Source of the DNA: Romanomermis culicivorax
Taxonomy: Eukaryota > Nematoda > Enoplea > Mermithida > Mermithidae
DNA length: 64,000 nucleotides
NCBI GenBank assembly: GCA_963922205.1
Contig: CAWUHX010000062.1
Coordinates: forward strand, 1,178,001 to 1,242,000
Reading direction: 5' to 3'
Shown here: positions 4,022-51,912 of the stretch, one piece after another
How positions within the stretch are numbered: position 1 is the stretch's first letter
How the letters are laid out: the number at the start of each line of letters is the position of its first letter
Notes under the pieces: generated by a model
The model's database searches: none
Seen by the model: only the letters and a program-made list of their open reading frames with translations
Told to the model about the DNA's origin: nothing
Translations under genes and position numbers: made by a program

Positions 4022-4035
4022 TTGTCTGGTTCACA
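4022..4035. repeat. Left piece of an inverted-repeat arm split by the LTR element
   Basis: TTGTCTGGTTCACA here joins across the retrotransposon to 17954-17979. Together they match the reverse complement of 18144-18185. This marks an older inverted-repeat element that served as the insertion target. Confidence 0.8.
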
Positions 4036-4598
4036 TGTTGTAGTGTGTTTTCTGCCGATTTAGCCATTTTTGTCAAAGAGCGCATGAGGCCTGCAGGTAG
4101 CAAGTGGAGTGAGCAACGCGGACCATCAACAGTCGTCGTACTGTAGCACACATCCGTACGCATGTGCTGGCTCTCTCTCATTGTCTCTTTATTATTATTC
4201 GTGTATGTTTTCGTACTAATCGTGTGCCCCACTGGCCACTATTATTTTGCCATTCCCCGCCTCCCCGCACGAAACTCATTTGTTTTTCTCGTCCCAGTGC
4301 ATGGGAGTGATTGGTTTTATTTTCTCGCCCATTGTCGTTTGTAAGTAAGTGTTTTGTTTTTCAATTGCGTAATATAAAAGTAGAAAATTCTCTCCATTCA
4401 GTGTTACGCAATTAGGGAGACAATTAAGGAAACACCTTCATTCCTTAATTGGTGGGATAATTAGTGTTGGGTTTAAGTATGAGTAATTAAGTTAATCGGG
4501 TAAACATGGGCATGGGAAACACGTACATTAAGGACGAATCCTGGGATCGCAATCCTGCCTGTGACTCATCGATGCCCGACCCATCCACAAATACAACA
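4036..4598 (+). repeat. 5' long terminal repeat (563 bp)
   Basis: It begins TGTTGTAG and ends ATACAACA, and aligns without gaps to 17387-17949. A TATA-like box (TATAAAAG, 4373-4380) suggests transcription starts around 4400. A perfect 10-bp stem (CAATTAAGGA 4421-4430 with 4442-4451) follows. The stretch around this stem, about 4406-4464, is free of differences between the two LTRs apart from its edges. Confidence 0.95.
4373..4380 (+). promoter_or_regulatory. TATA-like box of the LTR promoter
   Basis: TATAAAAG in the 5' LTR corresponds to TATAAAGG in the 3' LTR (about 17724-17731). Its placement mid-LTR would put the R region just downstream. This is inferred from motif and position only. Confidence 0.55.
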
Positions 4599-4599
4599 C

Positions 4600-4617
4600 T
4601 GGTGACCGTTTGGATTG
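4600..4617 (+). other. Primer binding site for minus-strand synthesis
   Basis: TGGTGACCGTTTGGATTG starts two bases after the 5' LTR. It begins with the TGG that pairs with a tRNA 3'-CCA end. I could not assign the priming tRNA with confidence. Confidence 0.75.
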
Positions 4618-4904: not shown

Positions 4905-7254
4905 TTGTCTACTTTCAGCACCCCTGCGTTGGACGGGACCGCACAAACCCAAGTACCACTCATTCGGGCAACCATGACAATAGTCAATTCATACGCGCCG
5001 CCGCCTCTGGGCCTAAACCCTCTCATTGCCGCCATTATTTGTCCTAACGTGCCAGCCGTATCACAAATACTGCCGCCAAGCACCGCCGCCCAAGTCAACA
5101 ATGACCAAACCATTGCCAGGACCGACTCTTCGGACTCCTTTATCAATATTAAACCACCACAGGCCCCAGCTGCCACCCGCATTTTGGAAACCAATCACTG
5201 CAGCAGCCTAGCAATTGCAAACGCCAATGAAGTCCATAATTTCCCAATCGAAGCACGCGACGCGTTGGACCAGCTCAGCACCGCCGCCGCGTGCATAACC
5301 AACAAATTGATCAAATTAATGGCACCGTTTCTGATCAATTTCAGGCCCAACAACTAAGTGTTCAACAAGAAATTTAAGAACAAGCCAAAGCCACAAAGGC
5401 GCGCTTCGCCACTCTAGCAGAACAAATTCAACAATTGATTTCGACCACCGCCCCCGCAACCAATGTGCATAATCTGCCTACACCAAGACCACCGCTGGTG
5501 TCCTCACAGTTTCACGGTGATGAAACACGAGATATTTACATCCCAAACAAAACTCTCTGTGAAACTGAACTGGCTCAGGTTTTCGGTCGACCGCCAATCC
5601 AAGTCGAACTTAAAGCGCCATCCACCAATACCCTATATAATAACAAATTTTCCCGTACTGCATGCGGTGAAGAAGACGTACCCCGTTCTGCACCTCAAAG
5701 ACACCTCCCGTCCACTGCAAATCCTTTTGGCTTCTCCAATTACCCGCCTGACAATTATTAAGACCACCCGCAACCTCTGTACAAAATGCCGCACACATCT
5801 CACCGTGAAGAAGATAGCCGCATTAAAACAATTGTCGACAATATGCACCCATTGACTATCAATGAAGCCCCGACAAATAAACGCCTATTACGCTTCTTCA
5901 TTCGTCTGGAAAATGAGTTCGGGTATGACGCCTCCAACCATGTGAAGAGCGCACTCTGCCGACTTACCCGTGATACGCCGAGTGACATGATTCGAGATAT
6001 GATGCGCTACCAAGACGCAAAAAATTTCCCCATGTTCCAATTAGCCCCGGATTGCAATCAGACGACTCTCAAATGCAGCTTGCCTCATTCACCCCCAAAG
6101 TCAGAGAGGAACCCCCCGCATTTTTGAGTAAAGTAATGACTTATGTACAATTATTGTACCAAGATGAAGATTGAACTTTTCGGCACAAACAAGTAATTGA
6201 CACTTTTTTGACAAAAATGCCTGTTTTCTATCAACTAACAATCAGCGAACAAGCAAAAAGTTTTACAAATGTTCAACAATTGGCCAACGCCATAGCTAAA
6301 GCCTATAGTGTCCTCAATGCAACGAAGGCAGAAATCCGAACTGCGGAGCGACCCATCCTCATCAACCAAGCGGACCCAGAAGTGCAACCGCCAAAGTCTC
6401 CGCAGCCCTTCAATCGCCATTTTGACTGTCGCTGTAGCATGGATCGCTCACAGAAGGGCTATCGCGACTGCTCCCTTTCAACTGACCGCTGCCCTCAAAA
6501 TTCAGTGCCACCACCCACTAAATTCGTCTCTTTCCAACTGCAGCCACCAGAACAACCTCTGCAGCCGCCACCATGCACAGAGCTGCTTTTAGAGCAATTG
6601 ATTCAATGATATGATCGCGACTACAAAGAACGTAAATCCCGACAATGCCCCAAGGAAAATCTATCCAGTGATCGGCAACAAAGCCCTCACAATCAATCTC
6701 AATCCCACGAAACATACGCCAACCGCTACGACCAATCTGCAAGCCGCAACCACCCCCGCATTGCGCAACCCACAGGTCTTTGGTGGGATGCCCACAAATC
6801 CTGCACCCACAACACTAAAGGTTGCATCTGGCTCAAGCGGCAAAATGCTCAACAAACAACTCGACAAGAGTTCACCCATCCAACACACGCCACTCAACCA
6901 CGGCAAACCAATTTTCAGATCAATTCCAATGATATCCATGGCCAATGCGATTGGAGACCCCGCCGCGGAGCACCACCCCAAAGAGGTTCAAACTACTCCC
7001 GCGGCGCGCAAAATTATTTTTATGAAGGTAACTCTATACCACACCCAAATGATTTTGTTCAGAACACCTACGCCGTTTACCTGAATCAGCAATTTCTGGT
7101 GCCATGAGAACAACACATTCGCTACAATGCCATGCCAGCCCCATACATTACAACACCTACAGATTCCTTGCGGGCCAGCTCTCAGTCCTCTGAGCTACAA
7201 CTAGCCCTACGGGCTTGTTGTAGCTCGGGCCACCAATATGGTCATCCCATCTAA
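4905..7254 (+). pseudogene. gag: gag (capsid/nucleocapsid precursor), broken
   Basis: The coding trace runs through three frames: 4905-~5300, then ~5300-6072, then 6073-7254. It has in-frame stops near 5372, 5759, 6172, 6607 and 7105. The first part is Pro/Ala-rich. A Gln-rich, probably coiled-coil stretch follows (5310-5440). A capsid-like helical region lies around 5870-6300 (frames reading FFIRLENEF and [11 protein letters not shown]). After that comes a polar tail rich in Gln, Asn, Ser and Arg. Near 6785-6840 a [11 protein letters not shown] stretch resembles a noncanonical zinc-binding motif rather than a CCHC knuckle. A TTTCAG acceptor-like site lies just upstream at 4914-4919. Gag identity rests on position and composition, so exact limits are uncertain. 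Confidence 0.75.
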
Positions 7255-7870
7255 GGAAATAGCATCCGCCGCACCAATTGTGAGCCCTGGGATAGTCTAT
7301 TTGAACCCAATGGGCCACCCTTTTCAAGATCCTTGTCACATCCGCTCGTCCGTTTGCCAAATCGACAATCTTACACCGTCCTCAAAGACTTTGGTTGGCA
7401 AATATGCCTCTAGGAGAGCTTTCCAAATTCCAATTAAACTCGGAGCCATCAAAGCACACCTACTTATTAACACTGGTGCCCAATGCTCCGTATTGTCATC
7501 AGGATTAGTCAAATGTGCTTTCAACAAGCAATCGCTCCAACTTCCAATATGTGGTAAAATCAAGGTAGCGGATAGCGCTGTTGTAAACACACATTGCCCT
7601 GTAGTCCTTACAATGGAATCCCCATTCGGTGAACATATGATCAAATGTGTAATTCTCCACCATGACAGAAACAATCAATGTATCACCAGCACCAATTTTC
7701 TCGCACACCAGGATATCCACGCGATTTTGAACTTCAAAGAAAATTATATTGAAATACAAGATGTGAAGTTGCGGCTCAAAGTAATCGCCTCGGTCCGCCC
7801 TCAAACGGAATTGTTCCTAAACCCCGTGTCTGGAGGAAATCCCCGAAGAGGAGCAAGTAAGCTTCTATGA
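7238..7870 (+). pseudogene. Retroviral-type aspartic protease region of pol
   Basis: The frame opens inside the end of gag and carries the protease core LLINTGAQCSVLSS. In this family the motif is DTGA/DSGA, so the catalytic Asp is Asn here (codon at 7469-7471), and the copy should be inactive. A downstream ILNFKENYIEI segment fits the C-terminal half of the fold. After about 7830 the reading continues for ~50 codons in another frame (about 7830-7980) before RT resumes at 8015, so there is at least one frameshift. Family assignment is firm; activity is excluded by the substitution and frame breaks. Confidence 0.8.
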
Positions 7871-8014
7871 TGATAAATCCAATATTTTCAGCCAACCTGA
7901 GGAAATTGAGGCCGAACAACCAATCAGGCAAGCTCAACCTAGTTCACACCAACCACACTCTCGGTGGCTTAGCAACCACCATGCCAGGTAGCAACCACCA
8001 CCGCAGACCATGAC

Positions 8015-9610
8015 TTGACCGACCATCAACCTGCCGCTCTCAATAAGTCGTTCCCTTGCCACACCAACCAGCAAAAATTGGATTTCGCTTTGAACAAAAT
8101 GACTGAAAAAACTTACGTTACCGCCGCGCAAAAGACCAAAGCTCTTTGCATGCTACAACAAAACTACGACATTTTCAGCCTGCCCTGGCACAAACCAACT
8201 ATCACCAGCGAATTGACCATTAGCATCGATACAGGCACCGCAAAGCCTGTATCCCGCCATTGTTACCCCGCCGCGATGGAGCAAAGACCAATTGTACGCC
8301 GCCATATTCAAGAAATGCTCGACTACGACTTTATCGAACAATCCCGCTCACCCTGGGCTGCACCCCTGTTCCTGGTAAAGAAAAAAGATGGCTCATGGAG
8401 ACTCGTTGTCGACTACTGCAGAATAAATGATGTCACGCCCAGTGACAAATTTCCAATTCCGCGCATTGATAATTATTTGGACGCCATGGGACAAGCAAAA
8501 TTTTTCACCATGCTCGACCTCAAAGCAGGGTACTGGCAGGTACCCCTCGATAACAATTCCCGCGACAAATCAACCTTCATCTGCCAAGGTTTGTTCAGAT
8601 TCAAAGTTTTGCCATTTGGTTTGAAAAACGTGCCCGCCGAATTCCAAGGCCTAATGGGAAGAATCCTCCGCCCGTACATCTGGAAGATTTGTCTCTTTTA
8701 TATCGACGATATTATAATTTTTTCAAACTCGTTCGAAGAACATTTGGAGCATCTACAAATCATTTTCAATGCCCTCAGCACAGCCAACCTCACGCTTTGG
8801 CCCCATAAATGCAAGTTCCTACTGCTGCAAGTCAAATTCCTGGGACACCTTCTTAGCGCTCGCGGAATCGCTGCCGATCCGGAGAAAGTTAAAGCTATCG
8901 CCGAGTATAAATTTCCAACCACCAAAAAAGGTATGCAAAGTTTTTTAGGCTTAGTCCAATGGTGCAAACAATTTATCCTGAATATGGCAACCTTGTCCAG
9001 TCCTTTGTATGGACTCCTACGAAAAGATGCCCAATATATCGCCACAGACAAACACCACACCGCATTTGAAGGTATCAAAACAGCCCTCACGTCATCGCCT
9101 TTTCTCCGCTATCTGGTGTACAATGGTAAAGCTCAATTTGTCATCCAAACAGACGCCAGTACAACCACTATTGGAGCAATTTTTTACCAAGAAAACAGAA
9201 ATGATCAATGGGTCATTGGCTACAACAGGGGCATACTCACCGATGCTGAAACCCGCTACAGTACAATGGAGCGCAAATGCCTCGCCATTGTCAATGGTTT
9301 CCGGATGTACAGTCACTACATTTATGGCCAAAAAGTTATTGTTCGCACCAACCACAAGCCCCTCGAATGGCTCAAAGATGAAAAACACCGAAATTCGTGC
9401 CTCCAACATTTTGCTATCAACCTCCAAGATAACGATTACAAAGTTGAATATGTCGAAGGTAAAGACAACGCTTGTGCCAATCTTTTATCCTGGAAAGATG
9501 ACCGTGATAAAAGGCCGATCCCGAATACTGAAAACTTAACCGCAATGATTTTCCATAAAGATTTTCACCCTGCTGGTGCATTATCCCCCCCCCAATTTGA
9601 CGGTTCCTGA
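8015..9610 (+). pseudogene. pol: Reverse transcriptase - RNase H of pol
   Basis: A single 531-codon frame copies RNA to DNA and removes the RNA template strand. RT motifs read in order: [24 protein letters not shown] (8509 onward), [13 protein letters not shown], and the catalytic YIDD at 8699-8710. The RNase H part follows, with [28 protein letters not shown] and NACANLLSW. The last motif normally reads ADxLSR/W, so a conserved Asp is Asn here (codon at 9479-9481). The palm motifs and 'tether' place it in Ty3/gypsy. A TGA at 9608 separates it from the integrase, which continues in the same frame. Confidence 0.95.
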
Positions 9611-9679
9611 TATATATACCCAGCAGCGGCCACACCACCCACGGAAGTCGACGCAGACATCAACGCCCTCACTTGTGCA

Positions 9680-10603
9680 ATGACCAAAAAAACCATCAGT
9701 CAACCCACACTCAAGGATTCTATGCCATTGATCGCCGACTACGCGCTGCCCCCGGCCGAAGCCATAACAATGGCCTCCCATGGCAAAGTCTTACAAGCAC
9801 AGGCTGCCGATCCTGCTATCACAGCAATCATTGCCTCTCTCCAAAGCCACAACATTTCAAAGTGCCCAACAATTTTCTTCACGGAAGGTGGACTCCTGTA
9901 CCACCAGATCAAAGATATCAAGCAATTAGTTGTTCCCGCATCCATGATTGACCAAACGTTACACCAATTCCACGGCGCAAAAATTTTAAATCACCAAGGC
10001 TCAAACCACATGCTAGCAGCCATCAAAGCTCATTTTTGGTGGCCCCATATGGAAGAAAACATCCGTGATTGGATCAAAACCTGCAAGATTTGTCAACTGA
10101 CCATGCCGCGTACATCACGGCCACTTCTGCTGCTGCCGATTCAAGCAAAACACCCCTTTGAGATCTTCGCCACCGATATTGTCAATATTTCGCTGGTAGG
10201 TGAGAAACGCCCATACGTTATTGTTTTTCAGGATTATTCTAGGAAATGGGATTCCGCGCATCCAATACCCGACCAAAAGGCTTCAACAATAGTGGAATGC
10301 TTCGTGAACAATGTCGTCCTAACACACGGTAGCCTGTTTGTTCTCCTTTCAGACCAAGGTGGCTGTTTCACGTCAAAGCTCATGCAAGATATTTGCGACC
10401 TACTCAAGATACAAAAAGTCAAAACGACGGCATATCACCCCCAGTGCAACAGAATGGTCGAGCGTTTCAATCAAAGGCTGATTGCCCAACTAAAAAAGTA
10501 CACCACCTACGATCCGGACAACTGGGAGTGCTACTTGCCATATGCAGTATTCGCCTATAACACCACGCCGCACACAGCTATGCGCCATTCGCCTTTCAGC
10601 TAA
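9680..10603 (+). pseudogene. Integrase, zinc-binding and catalytic domains
   Basis: The frame continues directly from RNase H past a single TGA. An HHCC-type domain spans about 9950-10110 (HQFHG, NHQG, FWWP, CKICQ). The DDE triad is intact: Asp at 10175 (FATDIV), Asp at 10352 (LLSDQGG) and Glu at 10460 (MVERFNQ). The last two are separated by exactly 35 residues, the hallmark of retroviral-type integrases. The TAA at 10601 truncates it before the C-terminal region, which resumes in another frame. It inserts the cDNA into host DNA. Confidence 0.93.
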
Positions 10604-10689
10604 TTAGGAGGCTACGAGCCGCGCATCACCTTCGACTATGACTGCGCCTGTTGTCTCAGGTTGCCCCTAAAATTATCACGTCTATCAGC

Positions 10690-11060
10690 ATAGTCTCACG
10701 CAAGCACAACTCAAGATGCACAAGAAGATAAAAGCTAACCTCGATGCAGCAGCCGCAGTCAGCAAAGAATATTTTGACCGAAAATCCTGAAAACGCGACC
10801 TTGCCGTCAACAACCTTGTCCTTTTGACCAACACAAGAAAGACTAACAAAATTCAACCTGATTTCTTTGGACCTTTTCTAATCACAGACCCATCCCGCGC
10901 AGCTGAAAATGTCATCACCATTGATTTACTCGATGCACCCGGCCGACCACAAACCATTTCCAGGACGCATTTGAAACCATTCATACCATGCCCCGCCAAA
11001 GAAGCTTTTGAACTCAAAGCGGGTGGACGGCATTTGCATCACAGTTCACACCACCAATAG
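10690..11060 (+). pseudogene. Integrase C-terminal region, in a shifted frame
   Basis: After a frameshift between 10603 and 10690 the third frame reads HKKIKANLDAAAAVSKEYFD. A stop near 10788 follows, then KIQPDFFGPFLI and TISRTHLKPF. This is the familiar 'GPF' module and C-terminal end of Ty3/gypsy integrases. I see no chromodomain. The frame ends at 11060, which marks the end of pol. Confidence 0.8.
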
Positions 11061-11581: not shown

Positions 11582-12082
11582 ATGACAACACCATCGACCT
11601 CGTCCACTTCCGCAGCCGATGAGCCCCCACCGTACCGGGAATTGATCAAAGTCAATGAACGCTATGTACGATGAGCAGAACAGCAGCCCCATCAAAACAA
11701 TTTGAGCTTGGCCTGCGACGGTACTTTATTTTTACACTTTCCTTGCTTCTATTTTTGCATGCTCTTTTGCTTGGGACCCCATGGGAACCCCCCACTCTGT
11801 AGCCCCGGGCCAGAACAAATGGTCAGCCGCCGTGATCCCATCATTGTCAAGTTGTGGCACCTAATACACCACAACCAGACACTGCTTCAACCTCTGCATA
11901 CGACAACTCTCGTCATCTCACTATTGTAGCCTGATCCAGTTGCCAAAATGCGCCCCTCGAAGTGACATCGCCCCCCAAGCCACCATTTCTTCAAAGCATG
12001 TTTCCCCTTTTCGAACTGCAAGCAAGGCCACACCTCTCTTAGTCCCTCTCTAAAGTCATCCTTTCGATTCCATTTCGCTCCC
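11582..12082 (+). pseudogene. N-terminal part of the second polyprotein, with PPPY motif
   Basis: An ATG at 11582 opens a Ser/Thr/Pro-rich start containing DEPPPYREL. PPxY is a WW-domain-binding 'late' motif in retroviral Gag proteins, though here it may have another role. The frame is the same as that of the exonuclease downstream but has stops at 11672, 11927 and 11963, so this copy is broken. Part of the interval (about 11720-11800) is Phe/Cys/Leu-rich and might be non-coding or intronic instead. I do not recognise a domain. The start is chosen because it is the first ATG after the acceptor-like site and in frame with what follows. Confidence 0.5.
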
Positions 12083-12930
12083 TTGATTTGGTGCCCATTG
12101 TGTCATATGTCAAATATCATGCTCACTCTTGTTCCAGAAAACAACATCAAACAATTGATCTCTGCCGCCGATTTGGAATCGTGGCATGTCTCCATGTACG
12201 CCAGACCTCTGAACATGTTGCCGCCGCCGATCTTTCTCTCACCCGGAAGTTTGGGGCAGGCCTTGGCCACCCAACCTACACCAAACTTCCGTGGCTACAC
12301 CCTGGTCGCTTTCGACACCAAATCAATCATGGCCGCGGACATGCAGAATTTCCAGTTTACCATGCCTATGCCAGCCGATTCCATGGCATCCAGCTATCCG
12401 CGATACGTTCAACTCGTGTTTCCTAACAGCACAATGTTTGTTTTCGAAACTTTCACCGCTACCCTGGAAGACTGGACTGCGCTATTCTCCCTAGTCGACG
12501 GCAAACACACCATCGTTGTTTCCTTGGATGGCACCGACAACTGGGCCGGTATATACGCTCTGTTGAGAACTCAATTCCGGACCGACTGCCAAAAGAAGAA
12601 TAAAGATCCCGTCGTCAAAGCAATTCATTTCAACGTGTACCGCGTAATCCGCAACATCAACATCTCCCCACCGCTGTACAAGCTGGCTCGAAGAATTGGG
12701 TTCTTCCCTGAAAAGGGCACCCTGAAGGCTACCGTTTCCGCCATGTAGGCGATGGACATTTCTAAACTCATTATATGATTCCCAGCCGCTTTGCAATTTT
12801 TCAACAACCCGGCGACATCTTTTCTGCAATCAGACATTCTTGCGTACGTCGCCCTTGACGCCTACTGTCCGCTCTTATTGTTCTTGGCCTTTGGCCGTTA
12901 TGGCTTCATCCCCGAGGTCTACAACCCCCA
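12083..12930 (+). pseudogene. DEDDy-type 3'-5' exonuclease domain within the retrotransposon
   Basis: One frame, interrupted only by TAG at 12746 and TGA at 12776, carries the three exonuclease motifs in order and at normal spacing. Exo I is GYTLVAFDTKS (Asp at 12314; the usual acidic partner is Lys at 12320). It is followed by RYVQLVFPN and MFVFETF, like the beta strands after Exo I in RNase D folds. Exo II is VSLDGTDNWAGIYALL (Asp at 12536), close to the WRN style. KGTLKATVSAM then resembles the 'GLKALV' segment. Exo III is ILAYVALDAYCPLLLF, with the Tyr-x3-Asp pair at 12845 and 12857. Family enzymes hydrolyse nucleic acids from 3' ends with two metal ions. The stops and the Glu-to-Lys change imply this copy is inactive. 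It lies in the element's own sense strand downstream of integrase. Confidence 0.8.
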
Positions 12931-12933
12931 GCA

Positions 12934-13378
12934 TTGTTTCCCCACGACTCGTTGGATGCCGCCGAAATGGACCATCTTGCCGAGACAATCATTGCAGCTT
13001 TTCACAATGTTGCATTGTCTGATGTTCTACCCCCCGACTCCGCGGGTCGAATTTATCCCACTATCTCGCAAATGGCCCTCCCTGCAATTATGCGAGACGA
13101 GGTTCTTTCCGCTTACAAATTTTTTATGTACAATTGTGCATCGTCTGACCACGGTGGGTCCTTTTGTTTAGGGACAGTGCCTAACAGTTTTTGCAACATC
13201 AAAGTTTTGACATGTACAACCCACCTGAAGCTTCTAACTGCTTCCAAGAAGCCCAAGGAAAAGAAGAAGAAACAGAAAGATGAGTGGAACAAATCACTGG
13301 ACCTCTCCGAGAACAAAGATCTGGCCCTCTAACCTCGATTGATATTGGATGATCCGAAACGCCTTCAAGCAGCTGTCA
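12934..13378 (+). pseudogene. Second polyprotein, segment after the exonuclease
   Basis: Coding continues in a different frame after a frameshift near 12925-12940. A helical stretch (DAAEMDHLAETIIAAF) is followed by a Lys-rich tail (KKPKEKKKKQKDEW, about 13240-13290) that could act as a nuclear localisation signal. After the stop at 13330 the same frame reads on to a TGA near 13384. No domain is recognised. Confidence 0.55.
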
Positions 13379-13382
13379 CCTC

Positions 13383-14621
13383 ATGAAGAGTAACCTCACA
13401 GACCGGATCATCAAATTACTCAACTTCCCGGTTTCCCCCATGTACAAATTGACATTTGGAGATCGCCTTCAATACAAAACAAACCCCGCGTTGCCACCAA
13501 TTCGGCACAAAGTTGATGACCTGTGGATCAAACACATCGCTGCCAACCAACCGCTCCGGGAGCAAACCTACCAGGGTACTCATTACTGTTATCACCCCTC
13601 CACCATTCTTAACTTTTTACAGGTGGATGAGGATTGGTTCGGATGGCTAACATCTTTCATGCTGTTGGCCGCGCTTTTGGCTTCCCTGTGTTCCGCCGCA
13701 GAATATGCCTACGTTAACGATTTGTTGCTTCGCCACACCCAAAATATGGATTCCGCAATTCGCACCACATTCTATGCTTGTATGTGGTACCGGGCCGACA
13801 GCAACCCCCGATCACACCTCACCGATTAGATGAATCGCATTCCCAAGGGAGAGCTGTCTTTCGCAAGCGACCCCGGAACATACATCTGCAACCGGTTCGC
13901 TTTACACCCGATCATCTTCGACAAGGAATTCCACATGGAAACGTCCGTTGAACAGATCCATATCAATGAATCCGATTATACGGCTAATCCCCATAGCCGT
14001 TTCCACTTCTACTCAACATTCATCACCATCATGGACTTCCAAAATCGATTTTCATTCCCCGCGCCGGTGTATGCATACCCCATGCCCACTATGGCTTCAG
14101 GGCACACGCTCACTGCTGAGGAACTGCTTGACTGCCCCACTGATGTTGACGTAGAACCTGCCAATGAAGAACTTTTGGAAGCGCCAATTTTCGACCTGAA
14201 CATAGCGAAGCTGCCGCCGTCAACTGACATGTCGACCCTTCCTATGCCCACTGCTCCATCCAATATTAGGGCAACAGCCACGCAAATCACTGACTTCTTG
14301 AAACTGACGCTCAACAAAATTTCAAACATCGCCCGGGGGCCGATAGACGAATCCACTCCCATCCAACCCGCTGAGATAGATACCGAAACGACCACCACCA
14401 CCAATCAAACATTAACAGACATACCCGAAGAAAGCACCTTTGATCAATCGACGTCAATAGACGTCGTTCCTATAGAACCCGCCACTACGTTGCCTCCAAT
14501 GGTGCCTGCCATAGACCCGCGAATCTATTTGGCCACACTGGCAATTCTGCCCAGACCTCTGATTATCACCACCATTGCCACCCCAGGTATATTGCACCTG
14601 TCTGTTTTTCACAACATATAA
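13383..14621 (+). pseudogene. Second polyprotein, middle region
   Basis: The third frame runs from 13383 to 14621 with only one internal stop (TAG 13827-13829, immediately followed by ATG), so it is a single ~410-codon coding stretch. The first third is rich in Trp, Tyr and Leu and has one hydrophobic segment ([18 protein letters not shown], about 13648-13700) that could be a membrane span or a buried helix. The rest is acidic and Pro/Thr-rich (DVDVEPANEELL; ETTTTTNQTL). I recognise no domain. An envelope-like role cannot be excluded, but there is no signal peptide, furin-like site or cysteine pattern to support it. Confidence 0.6.
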
Positions 14622-15694
14622 TTTCAGATCACCAATGGCAAGCACTAGCTACAGTACTCACCGCGTATCATTTTCCACTGCCGCCGCCCGGTATGTTGTT
14701 CGCCAAACACCACTGGATGGACTACCCCGATGTGCTTAAGGAAGAGATACAACATATTTTGCTGCCGCAAACAATGCCTGCAGCCCCCATTCCTCAAATT
14801 GCTCAAACGGCTCAGGTTAATGCTCAAGCGGCCATACAACCGCCGGTTGCATTACCGCCACCGATCGCCTTATCACCGCCACCGGCGCCACAACCACTGC
14901 AGCCCGCGACTCTTTTGCGGCCAACGGCACCTGTGGATGTTCAAACCCCACAGGCCCCCAGCACGTCTGGGCCGGCTCTAGATGGCCATGGCCAGCCCAT
15001 TCGAAAACCTGGATGTTACGAACACTCCGTGAAGCGCAAACAGCATCTTCAGGAAGAGGCCGAACATCGAAAATCTCACAAAAGGTGTATGACAGATGAA
15101 CCCCCCACAAGGCGAATGCTGCCACCCAGTACTTCGCGTACTGAGCGCAGCAAAATGCCTAGCAAACAAACAACCCGTCACCGCAAACAACGCGATAAAC
15201 AGAAAGCTCGTGAAGAGGCTGGTAAATCTTCACAGACAACTCCGAGGCCACTACCAAAAATCACGTCAACGAAAACAGCAGCGCCAGCAACACAACCGCT
15301 GCCTGCTCGCCAGTCGGAAAGCCACTGTTCATGCCACGAGTCTCACTCTCGTGATGATCGCCACCAACAGCCTCAAACCACAAGCCGTGATAGCCCTCAA
15401 CACCAACGTCGAGTCGATGCACCGCCCCATAGCACTCAAAGTGAGCAAATGGGCCAGGTGCACTCGACAAGTTTTTACAAAGACGTGTACCGACGTGGTT
15501 TCGGCTGGTCACCACCAAAATTGATGGATTACATCAGCCCTGTGCATTATGACGCCGAAATCCAAAGACGTATAGAAGCCTTGAAAAACCTGCCAAAAGG
15601 CGTGTTCAAGGCCCTGCTACCCCTGCTGCCCCCGATGGATGTGGAACCTGCAACGTCATCCTCAACTTGGCTTCCACCTGCAGCCACCTCCTAG
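14585..15694 (+). pseudogene. Second polyprotein, Pro-rich and basic region
   Basis: A frameshift near 14585 moves coding to the second frame, which then reads [15 protein letters not shown] and [16 protein letters not shown] Pro/Ala/Gln-rich stretch follows (14770-14960), then a long Lys/Arg/His/Ser-rich stretch (15000-15420) with many Gln and Arg residues. The frame ends at TAG 15692. The composition suggests a disordered nucleic-acid-binding region. The shift is placed where one frame loses, and the other gains, protein-like composition. Confidence 0.6.
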
Positions 15695-16490
15695 CCACCC
15701 ACGGCTCTGACGTCCGCTTCAACAACTATGATAACTCACACCACTTGGCTGCCGCCTACAGCCCCGTCGTCGGCTCAGAGTACCACATGAGCCCAACCAC
15801 AATTGGTTATCACGACTAGACCAGTTCTAGGAGTCGCTCCACCGACCAGCACAGCACAACGTGTCGAGCCGCTGTTGCCCAGTGAAGCAACCCGATTGCC
15901 CAATTACACGCATTTTCGAACCACAGACTCTCCGCATTGTGTTATGCTATTGACGCCTCGCCATCCACCGTGTAACAATCCATCCGTTGAGTTTTTCATG
16001 CCGCATACGTTGCACTAAATGGTTTTGATCAACTTCTTCAGCCACCTTGGTGTTTGCATTACTATGGCTGTCAACATTCGCGAATCAAACGCTTCGCTGG
16101 CTTTGTACCAATATTTTCGTCAACACTATCGCCCCACGTACCAAGAACAACAATGGCCCGTTTCGCATGAGTTGGCAGCACTAATCCTGCGATAAGTTGC
16201 TGGCCTGTGGACCGAGGAGCTCGGCGTCGTTGAGGCCATCCACACTGCCCATTTGGACCTCTTTCTGTACAAAGCTGGTGGCTTGGACAACCCCTCCTGT
16301 CTATTGCAGGCCTATAAGACCGCTGTTGGCTTGATCGACAGCTGGATGGCCTACCTGCAATATTCACCGTTCCTGCAACCGCCCGAAATTGTCGATATTC
16401 AATGAATTTACCTCCAGTATCATAGCGAAACCAACCGTCCGGTACCCCCGCGGTGTCGGCACGATTTCTCTGCCCAGTAGAACTTGTTGC
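15695..16490 (+). pseudogene. Second polyprotein, C-terminal helical region
   Basis: The same second frame continues past stops at 15692, 15788, 16016, 16193 and near 16403 with protein-like sequence throughout. It includes [30 protein letters not shown] and [18 protein letters not shown]. Unbroken composition on both sides of each stop shows that the stops are decay. It appears mostly helical, with no recognised domain. It probably ends near 16480. Confidence 0.55.
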
Positions 16491-17373
16491 CACCGCGACT
16501 GCTGCCTCCAACAGGGTTGCAATGAGACCGCCCGTCATTGATAGCTATGCAGCTGCCGCCCCGCGGTGTGAATCCTCTCACTGCTCCGATCGCAAACCTA
16601 CACTTGGACTTCCCGCCGGGGCCATACCATCAACTACTGTCGCAATCGCCACTCTCGCTCCGTTTGTTTCGATGGCCATGACAATCCCAGTGACCCCTAT
16701 GGTTATCACAACGACAGTTATCACCAAGACAATCACAACCGCGGTGACAACCGACAACAATCTTGATCCGCCTCCGATACTTGCCATCATGGCCGCCATT
16801 GATTGAAAGCTTTTGTACAGTAATATTCGTTTTTTCTTTTGTTTTTGTTCTCATTTAACCTCGTCTAATACAGGCTGTTTTCTTTTTCTAATCTCTTTTG
16901 TGTGCTTTATTTTGTACTAGTTCCCCCAGCGCACGTGCAGCCCATGCTAAGACCACACTGTAAGACGACTCCACATGTTCTACCGCCACATGCCCCCACT
17001 TGCGCCATTTTTGTCCTTTCTGCCTCCGCCGCCTTGTTTACGTTTTGTTATCGCCACTGTCGTAGTGGCCGGCCTCACCCTCCCATCCCCATGGCGTCAT
17101 ATGCTGGTGCGCTCCAGTATATGAGTGCGGACGGAGTGACAACACGAGCTGCAGCATTGCTGAACTTATGGCCTCGCTAATTGCAACTCATGTTGGAAGG
17201 TCTCACCCTACGCACCACCCAAAATCAGCTCAAACAACCCCAATGACTCTGTCGGCCCCACTGCACAAAACCGAAGACCCCTTCGGCCAACCTGGTGACA
17301 GCCTGTAGTAGCCGTGCCCTTCCCCTTGCATCTTTTGGTTATTTCTTGATGATCGCTTAGGGCGATCTACTGC
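16491..17373 (+). other. 3' untranslated or degenerate coding region of the element
   Basis: Frames at 16453-16806 and 16902-17180 are open but of simple composition (runs of Thr, Val, Ile and Pro) and have no match I can name. The sequence may be 3' UTR or a badly decayed C-terminus. Confidence 0.4.
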
Positions 17374-17386
17374 AAGAGGGGAGGGG
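17374..17386 (+). other. Polypurine tract
   Basis: AAGAGGGGAGGGG abuts the first base of the 3' LTR. It is the RNase H-resistant primer for plus-strand DNA synthesis. Confidence 0.9.
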
Positions 17387-17949
17387 TGTTGTAGTGTGTT
17401 TTCCGCCGATTTTGTCATTTTTGTCAAAGAGCGCATGAGGCCTGCAGGTAGCAAGTAGAGTGAGCAACGCAGACCATCAACAGTTGTCTTACTGTAGCGC
17501 ACGTCGGTACGCGTGCACTGGCTCTCTCTCGGTGTCTCTTTATTATTATTGTTGTATGTTTTCGTACTAATCGTGTGCCCCGCTAGCCACTATTATTTTG
17601 CCATTCGCCACCTCCCCGCACGAAACTCATTTGTTTTTCTCGTCCCAGTGCGTGGGAGTGATTAATTTTATTTTCTCGCCCGTTGTGGTTTATACGTAAG
17701 TGTTTTGTTTTTCAATTGCATTATATAAAGGTAGAAAATTCTCTCCGTTCAGTGTTATGCAATTAGGGAGACAATTAAGGAAACACCTTCATTCCTTAAT
17801 TGGTGGGATAATTAGTGTCGGGTTTAAGTACGAGTAATTAAGTCAATTGGGTAAATGTGGGCTTGGGAAACACGTACATTAAGGACGAATCCTGGGATCC
17901 CAATCCTGCCTGTGACTCATCGACGCCCGACCCATCCACAAATACAACA
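17387..17949 (+). repeat. 3' long terminal repeat (563 bp)
   Basis: It aligns gap-free to 4036-4598 with about 42 differences, roughly three-quarters of them transitions. The hairpin stem is intact at 17772-17781 and 17793-17802. CACA (17950-17953) follows directly. Confidence 0.95.
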
Positions 17950-17979
17950 CACACCCATCTTATAACATTATACACACTT
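17950..17979. repeat. Right piece of the split inverted-repeat arm
   Basis: CACACCCATCTTATAAC and the bases up to 17979 continue the arm begun at 4022. Removing one CACA copy gives the sequence found, inverted, at 18144-18185. Confidence 0.85.
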
Positions 17980-20780: not shown

Positions 20781-22300
20781 ACCGGGTGGCAGACTGTGCC
20801 GTCTGGCTGACTGTAGCTCTTGGCCGAGTACCGGGTGGCGGAATTCGATTTGAAATAGTTCATTTTTATAATTTAACCTTATGTAAAACGTTTTTGCACG
20901 AAATGTGAAAAAAATGTTGCTAAATGTATGTTTCAATGTACAAGATATCATCAAAAAAATGCAGGAGCAACGCAAAAATATGCTAATTAAGTAAAAGCAC
21001 ACAAGGATACCTATTTGAATTCAAAAGTTTTTCATTCTGTAAGAAATTTTCCCCTCGTAATTATTCACTTTGTTGAGTATATTAGTTATAGAATGAATGA
21101 AAATGATTTCGAGACTGGTGAATATCTGTTGACAGTTCATGGAAATTCGACGTTGCTCAACTGCGTAAGTCGCACAAATCCCAACCATTTTTTGCTTTTT
21201 AAAAAGAATAAAACTAAACGAGGATTTGACGGTTTGCAAATGTGTATTATGAATCATACATGTAGCGGCGCCCCGAGGTCTGGAGGGGGGTTTGGACGAC
21301 TTTTTTGGGCCGGGGGTCAGTAATTCCCAAAATTTTGTGGGGAGAGGTTTCTCAAGCAAAAAAACAGATTTTTTTACGAAGAAGGTCCGACAAAGAGTTC
21401 AAAAAATGATAATTTTTTCAAAAAAGATCGAAAAAATGTATTCATGGCGCGAAGCGCCCAGAAAATTCACATTTTTGACCATTTTTTGTTCAAAAATTGA
21501 CATTTTTCATCAAAAAATTAACAATTTTCAGTATTTTTCTGACAAAAAGTATGGGAGTTCCTACGACTACCATATGGCTAGCCGTAGGATTGGAAAATCC
21601 TGGGAGGCGGTCGCCCAATGGCTAGCCGTATGGTCGACGATTTCTGGGGGGGAGTTCCCATAGCACTCCACCCCCCCCCCCCCCAATCACATGTATGTTA
21701 TGAATGCAACAATTGTGCTAAGCTAGGACGAAAAAGGCCGAGTTTTAGTTAGGTATTGTCGGGTCAAGAGTGATCCTGAAGTTGGCCATAACTTACAATG
21801 TGCTCCAACTGATGCTACAACGACGGAAACCTTACGTGTTAAGCGGGAAATTATTAAAAGCGCCGAAAATGGCGAAAACCGTTTAGGGCTTACATGAATG
21901 GTCTAGCATTGCTCCCACAACGTTTTCCGGATCAAGAATTACGAAATAATATTGAATTAACTTTGCCGTCCTACGAATCTTTCTTGAAAATTCTATTTTT
22001 TGCCAAGTTCTAACATATTTTATCCATAGTTTTTTTGCTACAAAAATATTAGAAAAAGTCAATGAAATCAAACAATCTAGGCTTTTATAATGAATCAAAA
22101 AATTATGAAGGGCATATTTCTGCACTTAATTAGCATATTTGTGCGTCGTTCTTGCATTTTTTGATGATATTTTGTGCATTGAAACGTATATTTAGTAACA
22201 TTTTATTCACATTTCGTGCGAAAACGTTTTACATAAGGTTCGACTTACATATAAACTATTTCAAATTGAATTCGGTTAGACGGCACAGTTGGCCACCCGC
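20781..22300. mobile_element. Inverted-repeat element (~1.5 kb, arms ~200 bp)
   Basis: The left arm (20781-21001) and right arm (22113-22300) are inverted copies. Both contain CGGGTGGC, CTGTGCCGTCT, TTTGAAATAGTT, CCTTATGTAAAACGTTTT and ATATGCTAATTAAGT in mirror order. The left arm has an extra ~40 bp. The interior includes a separate insertion (21245-21705). No transposase frame is seen, so it is non-autonomous. Confidence 0.7.
21245..21705. mobile_element. Nested ~460-bp inverted-ended repeat with a GC-rich interior
   Basis: The ends TTATGAATCATACATGT and, inverted, TTCATAACATACATGT bracket a block with G-runs at its left end, a 14-C run at 21671-21684 and a GGCGCGAAGCGCC hairpin at 21449-21461. 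It sits inside the larger inverted-repeat element. The class is unknown. Confidence 0.5.
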
Positions 22301-35499: not shown

Positions 35500-35862
35500 A
35501 AAACCCCATGAGTGTCCGAAGGTCCCGATTCGCCGAATAATGAATAAAATTTCCGTTTCTCCCAACTATGCATTAGTCCCTATTCCCCGAACGCCCCGAT
35601 TCGCCAAATATTGTATATGAGACGGATCCACTTCGAATCCGGATCTGGATCTAGAAAACTGCAATCGCCGGATCCTAAACAGCTGATCCGACCGGATCCA
35701 GATCGAATCCGGATTCTGTGTAAAGCATGTGAATGAAAAATCGTGTATATAGGTTTAATTTTTCAAAATCAAGTTGCATTAATTTATATTTTTTATCAGT
35801 TCAAGAGTGATTATGATAATCATTGAAATGAGAGGCGAATTGAAGCAAAAGCTCAAAATCTT
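35500..35862. repeat. Left arm fragment of a long TIR family (GGATCC-rich)
   Basis: CCCGATTCGCCGAATAATG words lead into degenerate ATCCGGATC repeats and then an AT-rich block. Together they match the inverse of 37265-37600 and the same-strand copy at 62390-62760. It is cut by the insertion that begins near 35863. Confidence 0.7.
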
Positions 35863-36650
35863 TAGCGGCTCTCACAATGGCATACTTTTGAGCGGTTCCG
35901 CAAAAATGCGGAACCGGAAAACCGCAATTGTAAGCATAGTTAACCGCAATTTCGAACCGGAAATTACTTAAGAGATGCAAGGTTGTAGGTTTCCGAATCC
36001 AAAAGCGTCAAAATGCTTGGGTATGCTCCTAATTGCATGGAAAAGCATCCGTAGGTAGGCACATTACAATCGTTTTTAAAAATGGGGAAAATTTTTGGAA
36101 AATGAGGAAAAAAATTTTGGGTCCGGTTTTCATGTGGAAAAATCAACCGCTCTAAAAACATCATGTTTTAAAAGCTTAAAAACACTAAAATAAACCGTCT
36201 ATGAGCATTTTTAAGCGAAAAAAGACTTTGAGAAAGTTGGGGAAAAAATTTTTACCGCTATCGCCATTTGACGAAAAAGCCGGCGGGAAAAACAGTGATT
36301 AATGTTCACCAAAATACGTCTTTTCAGTTTTCGATTCCCCAAAATTTTTCCGACAATGAGAACCTTGCATAAATTTTTTTCCTCATTACTAATTTTCTTT
36401 CCTCAGAAGACTCTTTCGCAGAAAAAAACGGTGGACAGAGCAAATTCTGGAAAAAATTGAGTTTCTAGTTGATAAAGATCAGGTATTCAGTGTTATTCAG
36501 CGCAAAACGGCATGTACTGTATCAAGTGCGGCTACCAGAACCGCAAAAAGGACTCCACTCGATAACTCTTTGCGGGCCCATAAACCGCACTAAACCGCAA
36601 TGCGGTTGCGGGTTGCCACCCGTTGCGGCTAAGTATGCCTACGGCTTAAG
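35863..36650. mobile_element. Related GCGG-rich element, nested, left end incomplete
   Basis: Its right end reads GCGGCTAAGTATGCCTACGG then CTTAAG, the same terminus as the element at 32121-34435. The left part carries CGGCTCTCACAATGGCATAC, which also occurs subterminally there. No coding frame is present. Confidence 0.6.
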
Positions 36651-36935
36651 ATCTTAGTAATTTATTTTTTGACAATAATTCAAACTTCAACAACGCTTAC
36701 ACTAATTTCCTTTACGGTGCGAAGTTTAGACGAAGTTTCGTCGGGAAAATAGACCAATGCTATTTTTAGATTGCATTTTCTAAATATTTAATTTTTCCCC
36801 CGAAACACTGTAAACAGTATGTTACCCGGTTAAAAATAATTTTTCCCACAAAATTCTCGCCGTAATAGAAATTAGTGTAATAAAATGTCGTTGAAGCTTG
36901 AATTACTGTCAAAAATAAATTACAAAGATCTCGTT
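36651..36935. repeat. Inverted repeat, arms ~80 bp
   Basis: 36651-36735 (ATCTTAGTAATTTATTTTTT onward) and 36862-36935 are inverted copies around a ~125-bp loop. A direct relative of the first arm lies at 38560-38640. Confidence 0.7.
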
Positions 36936-36939
36936 GTTA

Positions 36940-37600
36940 CCTTTATTACTCAATAGAAGGCTATGGTCAAGCGACATTCACTCTCACGAAGCATCGGAAA
37001 TCGCAATTACTGAAATCTGAAAGTGTGGCGAATCCCACTCATTTTTATCTTGATGAATTTTCTCATTGCGATGAACATGAAATCATTGTTTTTTCTCACA
37101 CTCTTCCTTCGCTTATTCAGTACAATTATTTTCGGACTGAAAATTCAAACCAAAGTTTTACAGATATATATTTGTCAATATTTATTTGAAACGGAAAAAA
37201 CGTCTTCTGTGCAGAATTTCTTTAGTCTTTCCTGCACGGTGCAGATGGAAGCGTGCAAAAAAGCCTAGTCTAAAGATTTTGAGCTCTTGATTTAATTTGC
37301 TGCCCATTTCAATGATTATCAAAATAACTCTTGAACCGTTAAGATATATGAATTCATACAACTTGATTTTAGAAAATTAAACATAAAGATATTCATTCAT
37401 TCACATATATACATGCCATATACAGGGTCGTGAATCGGTCGGATTTGCTGATATGGATCCGACGACTGCAGTTTTCTAGATCCGGATTCGATGGAGCGAT
37501 TCTTTTAGGATCCGAATCCGATTTAGTCAAAAAAGTGGATCCGTCTCATCCCTAGTATTAGCGAATCGAGACGTTCAGGGAATAGGAATTATTGCATTGA
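36940..37600. repeat. Right arm of the GGATCC-rich TIR family
   Basis: GGTCAAGCGACATTCACTCT, GCATCGGAAATCGCAATTAC and the downstream AT-rich and ATCCGG-rich blocks match 63400-64000 in the same orientation and 62390-62910 inverted. Confidence 0.7.
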
Positions 37601-38000
37601 GCTGAAGGGCTTTCTGGTTGGCGCCAGAGCTGTCTCACCACTGACCAATGTCGGGGTCGACCAGGGTCCAACAAAAATGGCCGGGTTCGCAACACATGGA
37701 TGGCAGGAATATCAATTTTACGGGTGGGATGTTGTATATGTTATCATACAACTATTGTTCGGGCAAACGGGAAATTATTCATTATCTGGGGGACCTTTGG
37801 GGAATCGGGACATTCGGGGAAAAGGAATGTTCGGGGGATAAGGATACAATCATTCCCCAAATATCCTTTTCCCCTAATGTTCCGATTTTCCGAAAGTCCC
37901 TATTCCATGATGATCCCGATTCCCCGAATAATTAATAAAATTCCTCTTTCCCCGAACAATGCATTAGACCCTATTCCCCGACCGTCCCGATTCCCCGAAT
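37601..38000. repeat. Degenerate CCCGATTCCCCGAATA repeat tract
   Basis: Words of the form GGGGAATCGGGACATTCGG and their complements alternate through the tract. The same words occur at 35500-35620, 49340-49450, 62390-62530 and 63955-64000, always near the GGATCC-rich arms or isolated. Confidence 0.65.
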
Positions 38001-38430
38001 ACTGAATATATCATTGTCAATGAAATTATAGGCACGCATTTATTAAATTTGCATAAAAAGCGTAATTAGGTCCTTTTACAGATATAAAGCTGATCAAACT
38101 GATTTAAATGCTGGGACGATCAGTTCTACCTGTTTTGCAAACTCAGGTTCATCACATCGGCGGGGAATTTCGGTCAACCCTTCTCTATAACCTCTGATCC
38201 GTCTGATACGATTTTCGGCCAATTTGATCATATTCCTTATCAGAGAGTTAACGCCTCTATTGCATCAATTGAGGCCTTAAGCTCAATATGACCAACTTCC
38301 GGATTCTCCATAACATGATCATGTCTGACTATTGTCCTTCCTTATGTCCTTCAATTTATCACAATTTAGACATTCATAATAATCTGTAACCTGTTCCATC
38401 TGCTGATCTGCTAAACATATTTTTCTGAAG
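38001..38430. other. No gene seen
   Basis: AT-rich sequence without a supported frame. Confidence 0.4.
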
Positions 38431-38660
38431 AAGATAAAAATAAGTGGGATTTGCCACACTTTTATATTTCAGTAATTGTGATTTCCGATGCTCCGTGAGT
38501 ATAAATGTCGCTTGACCACAGTCTTCCATTAGGAAACAAAGTTAACAACATGATCTTATCAATTTATTTTTTGACAATAATCCAAACTTCAACAAATACA
38601 CTAATTTCTATCACGGTGCGAATTTTGTGTGACGTTTCGCTGAAAATTTTTCTTGAAACG
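38431..38660. repeat. Fragment of the GGATCC-rich TIR family, inverted
   Basis: Positions 38440-38540 are the reverse complement of 36945-37045 (TTGCCACACTT, GATTTCCGATGCTCCGTGAG). Positions 38560-38640 repeat 36651-36735 directly. Confidence 0.65.
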
Positions 38661-38680
38661 TAAGCATTTATTTATTCGTG

Positions 38681-39701
38681 ACCAGACATTAGAGTGTGGG
38701 ACAATAGAGCGCAGACATTAGAGCGCAGGGACATTGGACTGCGGACAATAGAGCGCAGGGCAATAGCGCGCAGTGACATTAGAGCGCAGGACAATAGAGC
38801 GCAGGACAATAAAGCGCAGGGACGTTAGACCGCAGGACAATAGAGCGCAGGGACATTAGCGCGCAGGACATTAGAGCACAGGGGCGCGCGAGTGCATTTG
38901 AAAAAATCGATTTTTTCGAACCAGCGTTCCCTGATCTGCAATGAACGCGAATTTGACTTGTCAAGCGGGTTTATTTCAAAAGCTGACAAAGTTTTCAAAC
39001 ACAGGCAAAAACTGGGTGAATATTTTAAATGCGAGTTAGAACTTCAAGTTGAATTCGCAAATAACAAAATGAAACGATTTGACCACAATGTTTACAGGTC
39101 AAATATTTGCAATTTTTTGTGTCTTTCGCAGCTTTTGTATGAGAGATTTGCACACCCCATCTATTTACAAACTACTGGAACAAGCATTGATTCAGCCATT
39201 TATATACTCACAAAGTGTCTTTACAAACGGAGATTTACAAACAATAGTTTCACCATATCTAAAAATAGAAATGAACTTTAAAAAACATCAATATACCCTA
39301 GTTTTTGGACATAAGCTCACGCAGTTTTTTGTGGACAGATTTCATAAAATTGATGACTGAACTAAATATTGTTAAATCTCGCAAGAATCGAGATAAACTT
39401 ATTTTTGATTCTAAAATTTATCGCGTGGCAAATACATACGTGTTTTTTGTTTCGTTTGATCATATTAAACTATTTAAGGACCGCGAAAATATAAACTGAA
39501 ATTAGTTATTTTTCAAATTATTTCGTTTTCTTTTTTTTATTCTGCTCTGATCCAATCTTTCTGTGCTCTAATGTCCGCTCTCTATTGTCCTGCGCTCCAA
39601 CGACCCTGCGCTCTATTGTTCTGCCCTCTAAGGTCCCTGCGCTCTAATGTCCCTGTGCTCCAATGTCCGCGCTCTATTGTCCCGCGCTCTAACGTCTGGG
39701 T
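38681..39701. mobile_element. Foldback element with minisatellite arms (unit GACATTAGAGCGCAGG)
   Basis: The left arm (38681-38884) is a run of 14-17-bp units of GACATTAGAGCGCAGG/GACAATAGAGCGCAGG. The right arm (39543-39701) is the same repeat in the opposite orientation. The outermost bases are matching CCAGAC/GTCTGG. The 650-bp core between them carries a coding-like region. The design matches Drosophila FB-type foldback elements. Confidence 0.8.
38892..39360 (+). CDS. Coding-like core of the foldback element, with a possible 34-bp intron
   Basis: Frame 1 runs from 38892 to 39097 (RSLICNEREFDLSSGF; KHRQKLGEYFKCELELQVEF). It is followed by GGTCAAAT...CTTTCGCAG, a 34-bp GT-AG interval (39098-39131). 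Removing it joins, in phase, a frame that runs to TGA at 39358 (IYKLLEQALIQPFIYS; LKIEMNFKKHQYTLVF). The interval is very short for an intron, but the phase agreement supports it. A further frame (39350-39499, KSRKNRDKLIFDSKIYRVAN) may be a third exon or continuation. No domain is recognised. This could be a captured host gene or an element-borne protein. Confidence 0.4.
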
Positions 39702-51839: not shown

Positions 51840-51912
51840 CGCTCGGCGAGGGGCTCGAACCCCCGACCTTCTGAATACAAGGCAGACGCGCTACCAACTG
51901 CGCTAAGCGAGC
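51840..51912 (-). tRNA. tRNA-like gene, anticodon position reads UGU (nominally Thr)
   Basis: On the minus strand a 73-nt cloverleaf folds with a GCGC/GCGC D stem around AGTTGGTA, a 5-bp T stem with loop TTCGAGC, and a 7-nt anticodon loop CTTGTAT. The acceptor stem pairs at six of seven positions (one C-C mismatch), and the last anticodon-stem pair is C-T. A box (TAGCGCAGTTGG) and B box (GGTTCGAGCCC) are good matches to the pol III consensus, and a T5 terminator follows within a few bases (51832-51836 on the plus strand). No intron is present. The two stem mismatches leave open a decayed tRNA or a tRNA-derived repeat. Confidence 0.75.

What the first reader, a model, noticed from the sequence alone, without database searches (positions are those of the whole stretch)
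12083..12930. A DEDDy 3'-5' exonuclease domain encoded inside an LTR retrotransposon
Seen: Exo I (GYTLVAFDTKS), Exo II (VSLDGTDNWAGI) and Exo III (ILAYVALDAYCPLLLF) occur in one reading frame, in the right order and spacing, within the LTR borders and on the element's sense strand. Known: DEDDy exonucleases (RNase D, WRN, EXD2, the nematode MUT-7 group) trim nucleic acid 3' ends; Ty3/gypsy elements normally have no such domain. Inferred: the element captured a host exonuclease gene, or it belongs to a lineage that uses one in replication, in processing cDNA or RNA ends, or against small-RNA silencing. MUT-7 relatives act in transposon silencing, which makes an antagonistic role worth testing.
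Basis: partly seen in the sequence, partly recalled or inferred. Interest (0 to 1): 0.92.

Follow-up and report, generated by a model that had tools for sequence, protein, structure and literature searches.

The report
Dead nematode retrotransposon with exonuclease-like gene
A long, old jumping gene in a mosquito-killing nematode carries, after its usual copying genes, an extra gene with a much-altered nuclease-like domain; this copy is broken, but many relatives in the same worm keep the domain, a trait so far described in rotifer elements.

Summary
The window comes from the mermithid nematode Romanomermis culicivorax (all 74 relatives bear that name). The finding lies in a complete 13.9-kb LTR retrotransposon (LTRs 4036-4598, 17387-17949; RT-RNase H-integrase) with about 5 kb of further coding sequence (ORF3) behind the integrase. 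The DEDDy-like frame begins ORF3, but this copy is dead: Exo I reads DxK, the Exo II residue is N, stops stand at 11672, 12746 and 12776, and the frame shifts. Relatives show DxE, D and YxxxD; all five residues stand in 4 of 10 rows covering them. The domain belongs to the element: all 290 matches of 126 relatives lie inside it; 13 relatives join it to gag/pol, 40 to later ORF3. The DEDDy assignment is probable, not proven: no significant Pfam or PDB sequence hit, poor AlphaFold models, and in one control an unrelated ORF outscored RNase D; but profile-profile comparison beats all 296 column shuffles. Selection, activity and host origin were not testable. DEDDy ORF3s in rotifer LTR elements were published in 2017; a nematode lineage with a far more diverged domain is the new part.

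The parts
4032..4035 (.). target site duplication CACA, left copy (right copy 17950-17953)
   Evidence: flanks printed
4036..4598 (+). 5' LTR (TGTTGT...ACAACA)
   Evidence: 522/564 identical to the 3' copy, no gaps; 30 transitions, 12 transversions, K2P 0.079
4599..4616 (+). putative primer binding site CTGGTGACC...
   Evidence: position directly after the 5' LTR; matching tRNA not tested
7154..7870 (+). protease region (relative P0044 carries precomputed PF13650 and PF13975)
   Evidence: the window ORF itself has no significant Pfam hit
7973..9610 (+). reverse transcriptase and RNase H
   Evidence: RVT_1 E 7e-32, RT_RNaseH E 3e-26
9611..11060 (+). integrase (zinc-binding, core, C-terminal part)
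   Evidence: Integrase_H2C2 E 2e-17, rve E 3e-7 (31.3 bits, cut-off 32.6); C-terminal part from P0060 and P0071, which join it to the exonuclease segment
11582..11720 (+). proposed first ORF3 exon, MTTPSTSS...DEPPPY..., with a stop at 11672
   Evidence: relatives P0002, P0008, P0019, P0089 and others
11721..12137 (+). proposed GT-AG intron, 417 nt, phase 1
   Evidence: ends and phase; gene models P0002, P0019 and P0047 have the exact junction, other models of the region join elsewhere; no RNA evidence
12138..12943 (+). DEDDy-like exonuclease frame, broken (TAG 12746, TGA 12776)
12293..12325 (+). Exo I-like block, DTK instead of DTE
12518..12553 (+). Exo II-like block, N at 12539-12541 where 58 of 78 rows have D
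12836..12883 (+). Exo III-like block with YVALD at 12845-12859
12944..16800 (+). rest of ORF3: lysine-rich and proline-rich stretches, no Pfam family found; several frames, stops; 3' end approximate
17374..17386 (+). polypurine tract AAGAGGGGAGGGG
17387..17949 (+). 3' LTR

Best explanation
The window holds an old, inactive copy of a 13.9-kb LTR retrotransposon of Ty3/gypsy order in R. culicivorax. The element family carries a third coding region behind pol whose first folded domain is a strongly diverged DEDDy (DnaQ-like) 3'-5' exonuclease. Shown: element borders, domain order, multi-copy linkage, damage of this copy. Probable (about 0.8): the DEDDy assignment. Inferred (about 0.35): ORF3 is made from a spliced subgenomic RNA while the unspliced genomic RNA keeps the intron, and the nuclease is an accessory enzyme that trims 3' ends of the element's own RNA or cDNA in or near the particle. 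The PPPY motif near the N terminus, of late-domain type as recalled, would fit an association with particles, but this is untested.
For: LTRs, duplication and PPT; RT, RNase H and integrase. All 290 tblastn matches of 126 relatives (E up to 1e-4) lie on the + strand inside the element; of 124 relatives with the exonuclease segment 13 join it to gag/pol, 40 to ORF3 beyond 13000, and 124 are collinear within 400 nt. Majority DxE, D, YxxxD (D 29/37, E 31/38, D 58/78, Y 64/69, D 58/67 rows; 126 rows from 118 proteins, window row included); all five intact in 4 of 10 rows covering them, the window row among the ten, in two separate branches. Family against six DEDDy enzymes: local P 0.0025, reached by 0 of 296 column shuffles; reversed family P 0.32. 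The C half aligns to Exo III (0 of 100 shuffles as good, with either DEDDy profile), the N half to the stretch from the QL strand to Exo II (5 of 100; 1 of 98 with a 33-sequence profile). The weak PF01612 hit of P0076 (E 0.13) covers profile positions 143-169 of 173, the Exo III end.
Against: PF01612 in only 2 of 67 members, best E 0.092; no PDB sequence match of the A2 profile at E up to 10. hhalign probability stays low: 12%, 1-2% with untrimmed alignments (P 0.031 and 0.049), 2.6% and P 0.018 with the 33-sequence profile, though 0 of 98 shuffles reach it. Exo I lies in no local alignment, only in the global one, and 6 of 35 circular shifts score at least as well globally. In a family-HMM control, DEDDy sequences score on average 1.7 to 3.2 s.d. 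above shuffles, but three single decoys and an unrelated 321-residue reductase-like ORF (6.3-7.2 bits) exceed the best DEDDy (6.0 bits). Of the five catalytic columns three are below the median conservation of 0.863 (0.78, 0.82, 0.74) and two just above (0.93, 0.87). No RNA data for the intron.
Confidence: 0.6

Rival explanations
1. The ORF3 domain is of DEDDy descent but works without catalysis, as a nucleic acid binding or scaffold part, as for Maelstrom and EXD1.
For: Three of five catalytic columns are less conserved than the median column; 6 of 10 fully covered rows lack one or more of the five residues (one of the six, P0043, looks misaligned there). PMC5408684 passages name Maelstrom and EXD1 as inactive derivatives.
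Against: 4 of 10 fully covered rows, from two separate branches, keep all five residues. Most divergence is on terminal branches (sum 9.5, internal 1.8), as expected of dead copies, so losses there say little about the active lineage.
Confidence: 0.2
2. The exonuclease acts against small-RNA silencing of the element by trimming or degrading small RNAs, a mimic of MUT-7 or Nibbler.
For: Only by analogy: MUT-7-type enzymes act in small-RNA pathways (recalled; mut-7 is mentioned in PMC5408684).
Against: No specific similarity to the MUT-7 group was found or could be tested; PF01612 itself is barely detectable. [quoted passage not shown]
Confidence: 0.12
3. ORF3 is not an exonuclease at all: the motif resemblance is chance in an otherwise unrelated element-specific protein (env-like or regulatory, as CERV of Cer1).
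For: No significant family or PDB match; poor models; loose motif pattern arises in 2.3-4.0% of shuffles; an unrelated reductase-like ORF scores above RNase D against the family HMM. CERV shows that nematode LTR elements carry unrelated spliced third proteins.
Against: Local profile-profile signal above all 296 shuffles, both halves in the right register; YAALDAY together with DxE is typical of DEDDy enzymes (recalled; compare).
Confidence: 0.2
4. A separate gene or element inserted in this one copy (nested insertion), not part of the element.
For: The region is long (about 5 kb) and without known domains.
Against: 13 gene models of other copies join gag/pol to the domain in the same order, 40 join it to later ORF3.
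Confidence: 0.03

Closest known systems
Bdelloid rotifer LTR retrotransposons Juno and Vesta with DEDDy ORF3 (Rodriguez, Kenefick, Arkhipova 2017, PMC5408684; abstract, passages and section 3.3 seen)
   Same: LTR retrotransposon with an RNase D-like DEDDy exonuclease in a third ORF besides gag and pol; role unknown there too.
   Different: The rotifer ORFs show strong homology to DEDDy enzymes and their motif reads DEED; the nematode domain is barely detectable, opens a coding region of about 5 kb, and may be preceded by an intron. Direct kinship was not tested (no rotifer sequences held).
Terminons / Athena elements of rotifers (PMC6431247 and PMC5408684, passages)
   Same: Giant retroelements carrying DEDDy exonuclease ORFs.
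   Different: Penelope-like, not LTR elements.
Cer1 of C. elegans with CERV (PMC10309623, abstract and passages)
   Same: Nematode LTR retrotransposon with an extra protein from a spliced mRNA, genomic RNA unspliced.
   Different: CERV is required for export of genomic RNA; the passages seen name no exonuclease motif.
Cellular DEDDy exonucleases (RNase D, NrnC, WRN, EXD2, MUT-7/EXD3; PF01612)
   Same: DxE, D, YxxxD in order in relatives; profile-profile alignment in register.
   Different: No significant single-sequence or Pfam match; about 15 extra residues between Exo I and II and about 35 between Exo II and III (positions).

Membership tests
Ty3/gypsy LTR retrotransposon | paired LTRs with TG...CA ends and short target duplication | tested here: met
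Ty3/gypsy LTR retrotransposon | RT and RNase H before integrase | tested here: met
Ty3/gypsy LTR retrotransposon | RT phylogeny within Metaviridae | not tested
   no RT tree was built
DEDDy exonuclease (PF01612) | Exo I DxE, Exo II D, Exo III YxxxD in the window copy | tested here: not met
   DTK and N in the window copy; YxxxD is kept
DEDDy exonuclease (PF01612) | the same residues in the element family | tested here: met
   majority residues; all five in 4 of 10 rows
DEDDy exonuclease (PF01612) | significant match to the Pfam model | tested here: not met
   2 of 67 members, best E 0.092; window frame no hit
DEDDy exonuclease (PF01612) | profile-profile similarity | tested here: inconclusive
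   P 0.0025, above all 296 shuffles, but HH probability about 12% for the whole domain
DEDDy exonuclease (PF01612) | DnaQ-like (RNase H) fold | tested here: inconclusive
   models too poor, pLDDT 52.7
DEDDy exonuclease (PF01612) | 3'-5' exonuclease activity | not testable with these tools
   needs an assay
Juno/Vesta-type DEDDy ORF3 | DEDDy ORF behind pol in an LTR element | tested here: met
   position, given the probable assignment
Juno/Vesta-type DEDDy ORF3 | common descent of the ORF3s | not tested
   rotifer sequences not held
MUT-7 group | closer kinship to MUT-7/EXD3 than to other DEDDy enzymes | not tested
   only two parts of a mut-7 homologue were printed

The most novel reading that the evidence does not exclude
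A nematode retroelement lineage acquired a DEDDy exonuclease independently of rotifers, kept it long enough to diverge almost beyond recognition, and uses it from a spliced transcript as a replication or counter-silencing enzyme; accessory exonucleases would then be a recurrent tool of animal LTR retroelements.
Probability: 0.15. Interest if true: 0.7.

Novelty: new variant of a known kind. Interest (0 to 1): 0.45.

Why it matters
It probably extends exonuclease-bearing LTR retrotransposons from bdelloid rotifers to a nematode, in a family of many copies, and with a domain that ordinary profile searches miss; such ORF3s may be commoner than known. Recurrent gain of one enzyme type would point to a shared step in element replication or defence that it serves. 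It also shows that at least 126 public protein entries of R. culicivorax contain stretches of this element family, a few of them under host-like names.

Tried and rejected
Direct Pfam, NCBIfam and PDB sequence searches of the window frame and of members: no significant match. Weak DUF4350 matches in 9 of 67 members (best E 0.01) and one DUF4313 match (E 0.0039) were taken as chance. Two AlphaFold runs gave poor models; Foldseek on the first found nothing; the second was not searched. Viral contigs: none of 68 pattern matches encoded a relative. I first thought of the stretch before Exo III as a possible intron; relatives run through it in the same frame (P0003), so I treat its stops as damage. 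Global hhalign P values were rejected as evidence because 6 of 35 circular shifts do at least as well; four shuffles with huge global scores were one-column artefacts. A family-HMM control went against separation: three shuffled decoys and a reductase-like ORF of the RNase D loci scored above the best DEDDy sequence. Selection could not be measured: only protein models of other copies are held, the tree is star-like, and three of five catalytic columns are below the median conservation. The residue with the poorest conservation is arginine (mean 0.48), as expected from CpG decay of dead copies (interpretation mine). The third protein search scored 7999 candidates, 7989 of them with E up to 1e-5; the 120 listed were short RNase D / NrnC-type bacterial proteins, so a broad eukaryotic tree was not possible. 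That no nematode case was found in print rests only on the rows listed (one search found no paper); several of these searches list 8 to 20 of hundreds of papers, and most listed papers were not opened.

Full report
The finding was checked first as sequence. The three motif-like stretches are present on the + strand in one frame and in order. The frame is interrupted: TAG at 12746 and TGA at 12776 lie between Exo II and Exo III, and relatives' proteins jump frame near 12943 and 13383. Exo I here is DTK and the Exo II position is N, where 31 of 38 rows have E and 58 of 78 have D. So this copy cannot make an active exonuclease of the usual kind.

The surrounding element is complete in outline. 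LTRs of 563 nt at 4036 and 17387 begin TG and end CA, are flanked by CACA on both sides, and differ at 42 of 564 aligned positions (K2P 0.079), so the insertion is old. A polypurine tract precedes the 3' LTR, and a putative primer site follows the 5' LTR. Pfam finds RT, RNase H and integrase in Ty3/gypsy order; a protease is seen only through the relative P0044. About 6.3 kb separate the integrase from the 3' LTR.

The source was not given. All 74 relatives of the read-through frame are R. culicivorax entries of UniRef, as are all 120 listed of the 204 profile matches (84 not shown). A tblastn of the 126 distinct relatives against the window gave 290 matches at E up to 1e-4, none on the minus strand and none outside the element; 124 relatives hit the exonuclease segment, 13 of them also gag/pol, 40 also ORF3 beyond 13000, 10 beyond 14300, and all 124 are collinear within 400 nt. 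These are automatic gene models over many copies, so their joins need not be real proteins, but they show that the segment is a regular part of the element family. That contradicts a single-copy capture or a nested insertion.

Is it a DEDDy exonuclease? For: family majority residues are DTE, D and YAALD (D 29 of 37, E 31 of 38, D 58 of 78, Y 64 of 69, D 58 of 67 rows), and four of the ten rows that cover all five positions, the window row being one of the ten, keep all of them. The trimmed family profile against six known DEDDy sequences gives a local P of 0.0025, better than all 296 usable column shuffles (4 of 300 failed), while the reversed family gives 0.32. The C-terminal half finds the Exo III region (0 of 100 shuffles as good), and the N-terminal half finds the stretch up to Exo II (5 of 100; 1 of 98 with a 33-sequence profile). 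Against: no Pfam, NCBIfam or PDB sequence match of significance; local hhalign probabilities of about 12% for the whole domain and 18% for the C half, and less with untrimmed alignments or the larger profile; Exo I in no local alignment; poor AlphaFold models; 6 of 35 circular shifts at least as good globally; and in a family-HMM control DEDDy sequences average 1.7 to 3.2 s.d. above shuffles, but three shuffled decoys and an unrelated reductase-like ORF score above the best of them. I put the assignment at about 0.8; the mended control details do not change this figure, since the column-shuffle tests of both halves carry it.

Is it used? The data cannot say. Of the five catalytic columns three (0.78, 0.82, 0.74) are below and two (0.93, 0.87) just above the median column conservation of 0.863, and most divergence lies on terminal branches (9.5 against 1.8), as expected when most sequences are dead copies. 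DNA of other copies was not available, so dN/dS was not computed.

Expression: the protein of relatives begins MTTPSTSS...DEPPPY. In the window this is at 11582-11720, and the next exon-like stretch starts at 12138. The stretch between them starts with GT, ends with AG and is in phase; P0002, P0019 and P0047 have exactly this junction, while six of the eight models listed, which include P0002 and P0019 but not P0047, join elsewhere. An intron in the sense strand suggests a spliced ORF3 RNA beside an unspliced genomic RNA, as published for CERV of Cer1 (PMC10309623, abstract and passages). No RNA evidence exists here.

Known work: Rodriguez and colleagues (2017, PMC5408684; abstract, passages and section 3.3) describe DEDDy ORF3s in bdelloid Juno and Vesta LTR elements, gained at least twice, and in Penelope-like elements; a 2019 paper (PMC6338049, passages) already counts the DnaQ-like domain among well-known accessory domains of LTR elements. 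The rows listed by my paper searches showed no nematode case (one search found no paper), which is a limited look. The present case is therefore a new variant of a known kind. The most likely role, by analogy with what the rotifer paper discusses for RNA 3' ends, is trimming of 3' ends of element RNA or cDNA; a silencing role or a non-catalytic role cannot be excluded.

Noticed in passing
P0003, P0086, P0042 (R. culicivorax UniRef entries): Entries containing stretches of this element are named DNA-directed DNA polymerase, Autophagy protein 5 and Peptidase M12A domain-containing protein (the last also has a precomputed M12A domain, so a fused gene model). The sequence of P0086 was not inspected.
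   Followed up: partly
window 20841-20992 and 22124-22273: Inverted repeat of about 150 nt, 87% identical, about 1.1 kb apart; possible terminal repeats of a DNA transposon.
   Followed up: no
window 35516-39700 and 62381-63988: Several mutually similar segments (69-87%) in direct and inverted order, probably another repeat family.
   Followed up: no
window 51840-51912 (-): tRNA-Thr (anticodon TGT), the only tRNA found and the only Rfam match at gathering score in the window.
   Followed up: no
window 14750-15700: Proline-rich and basic coding stretch late in ORF3, shared by relatives, without a known family.
   Followed up: partly
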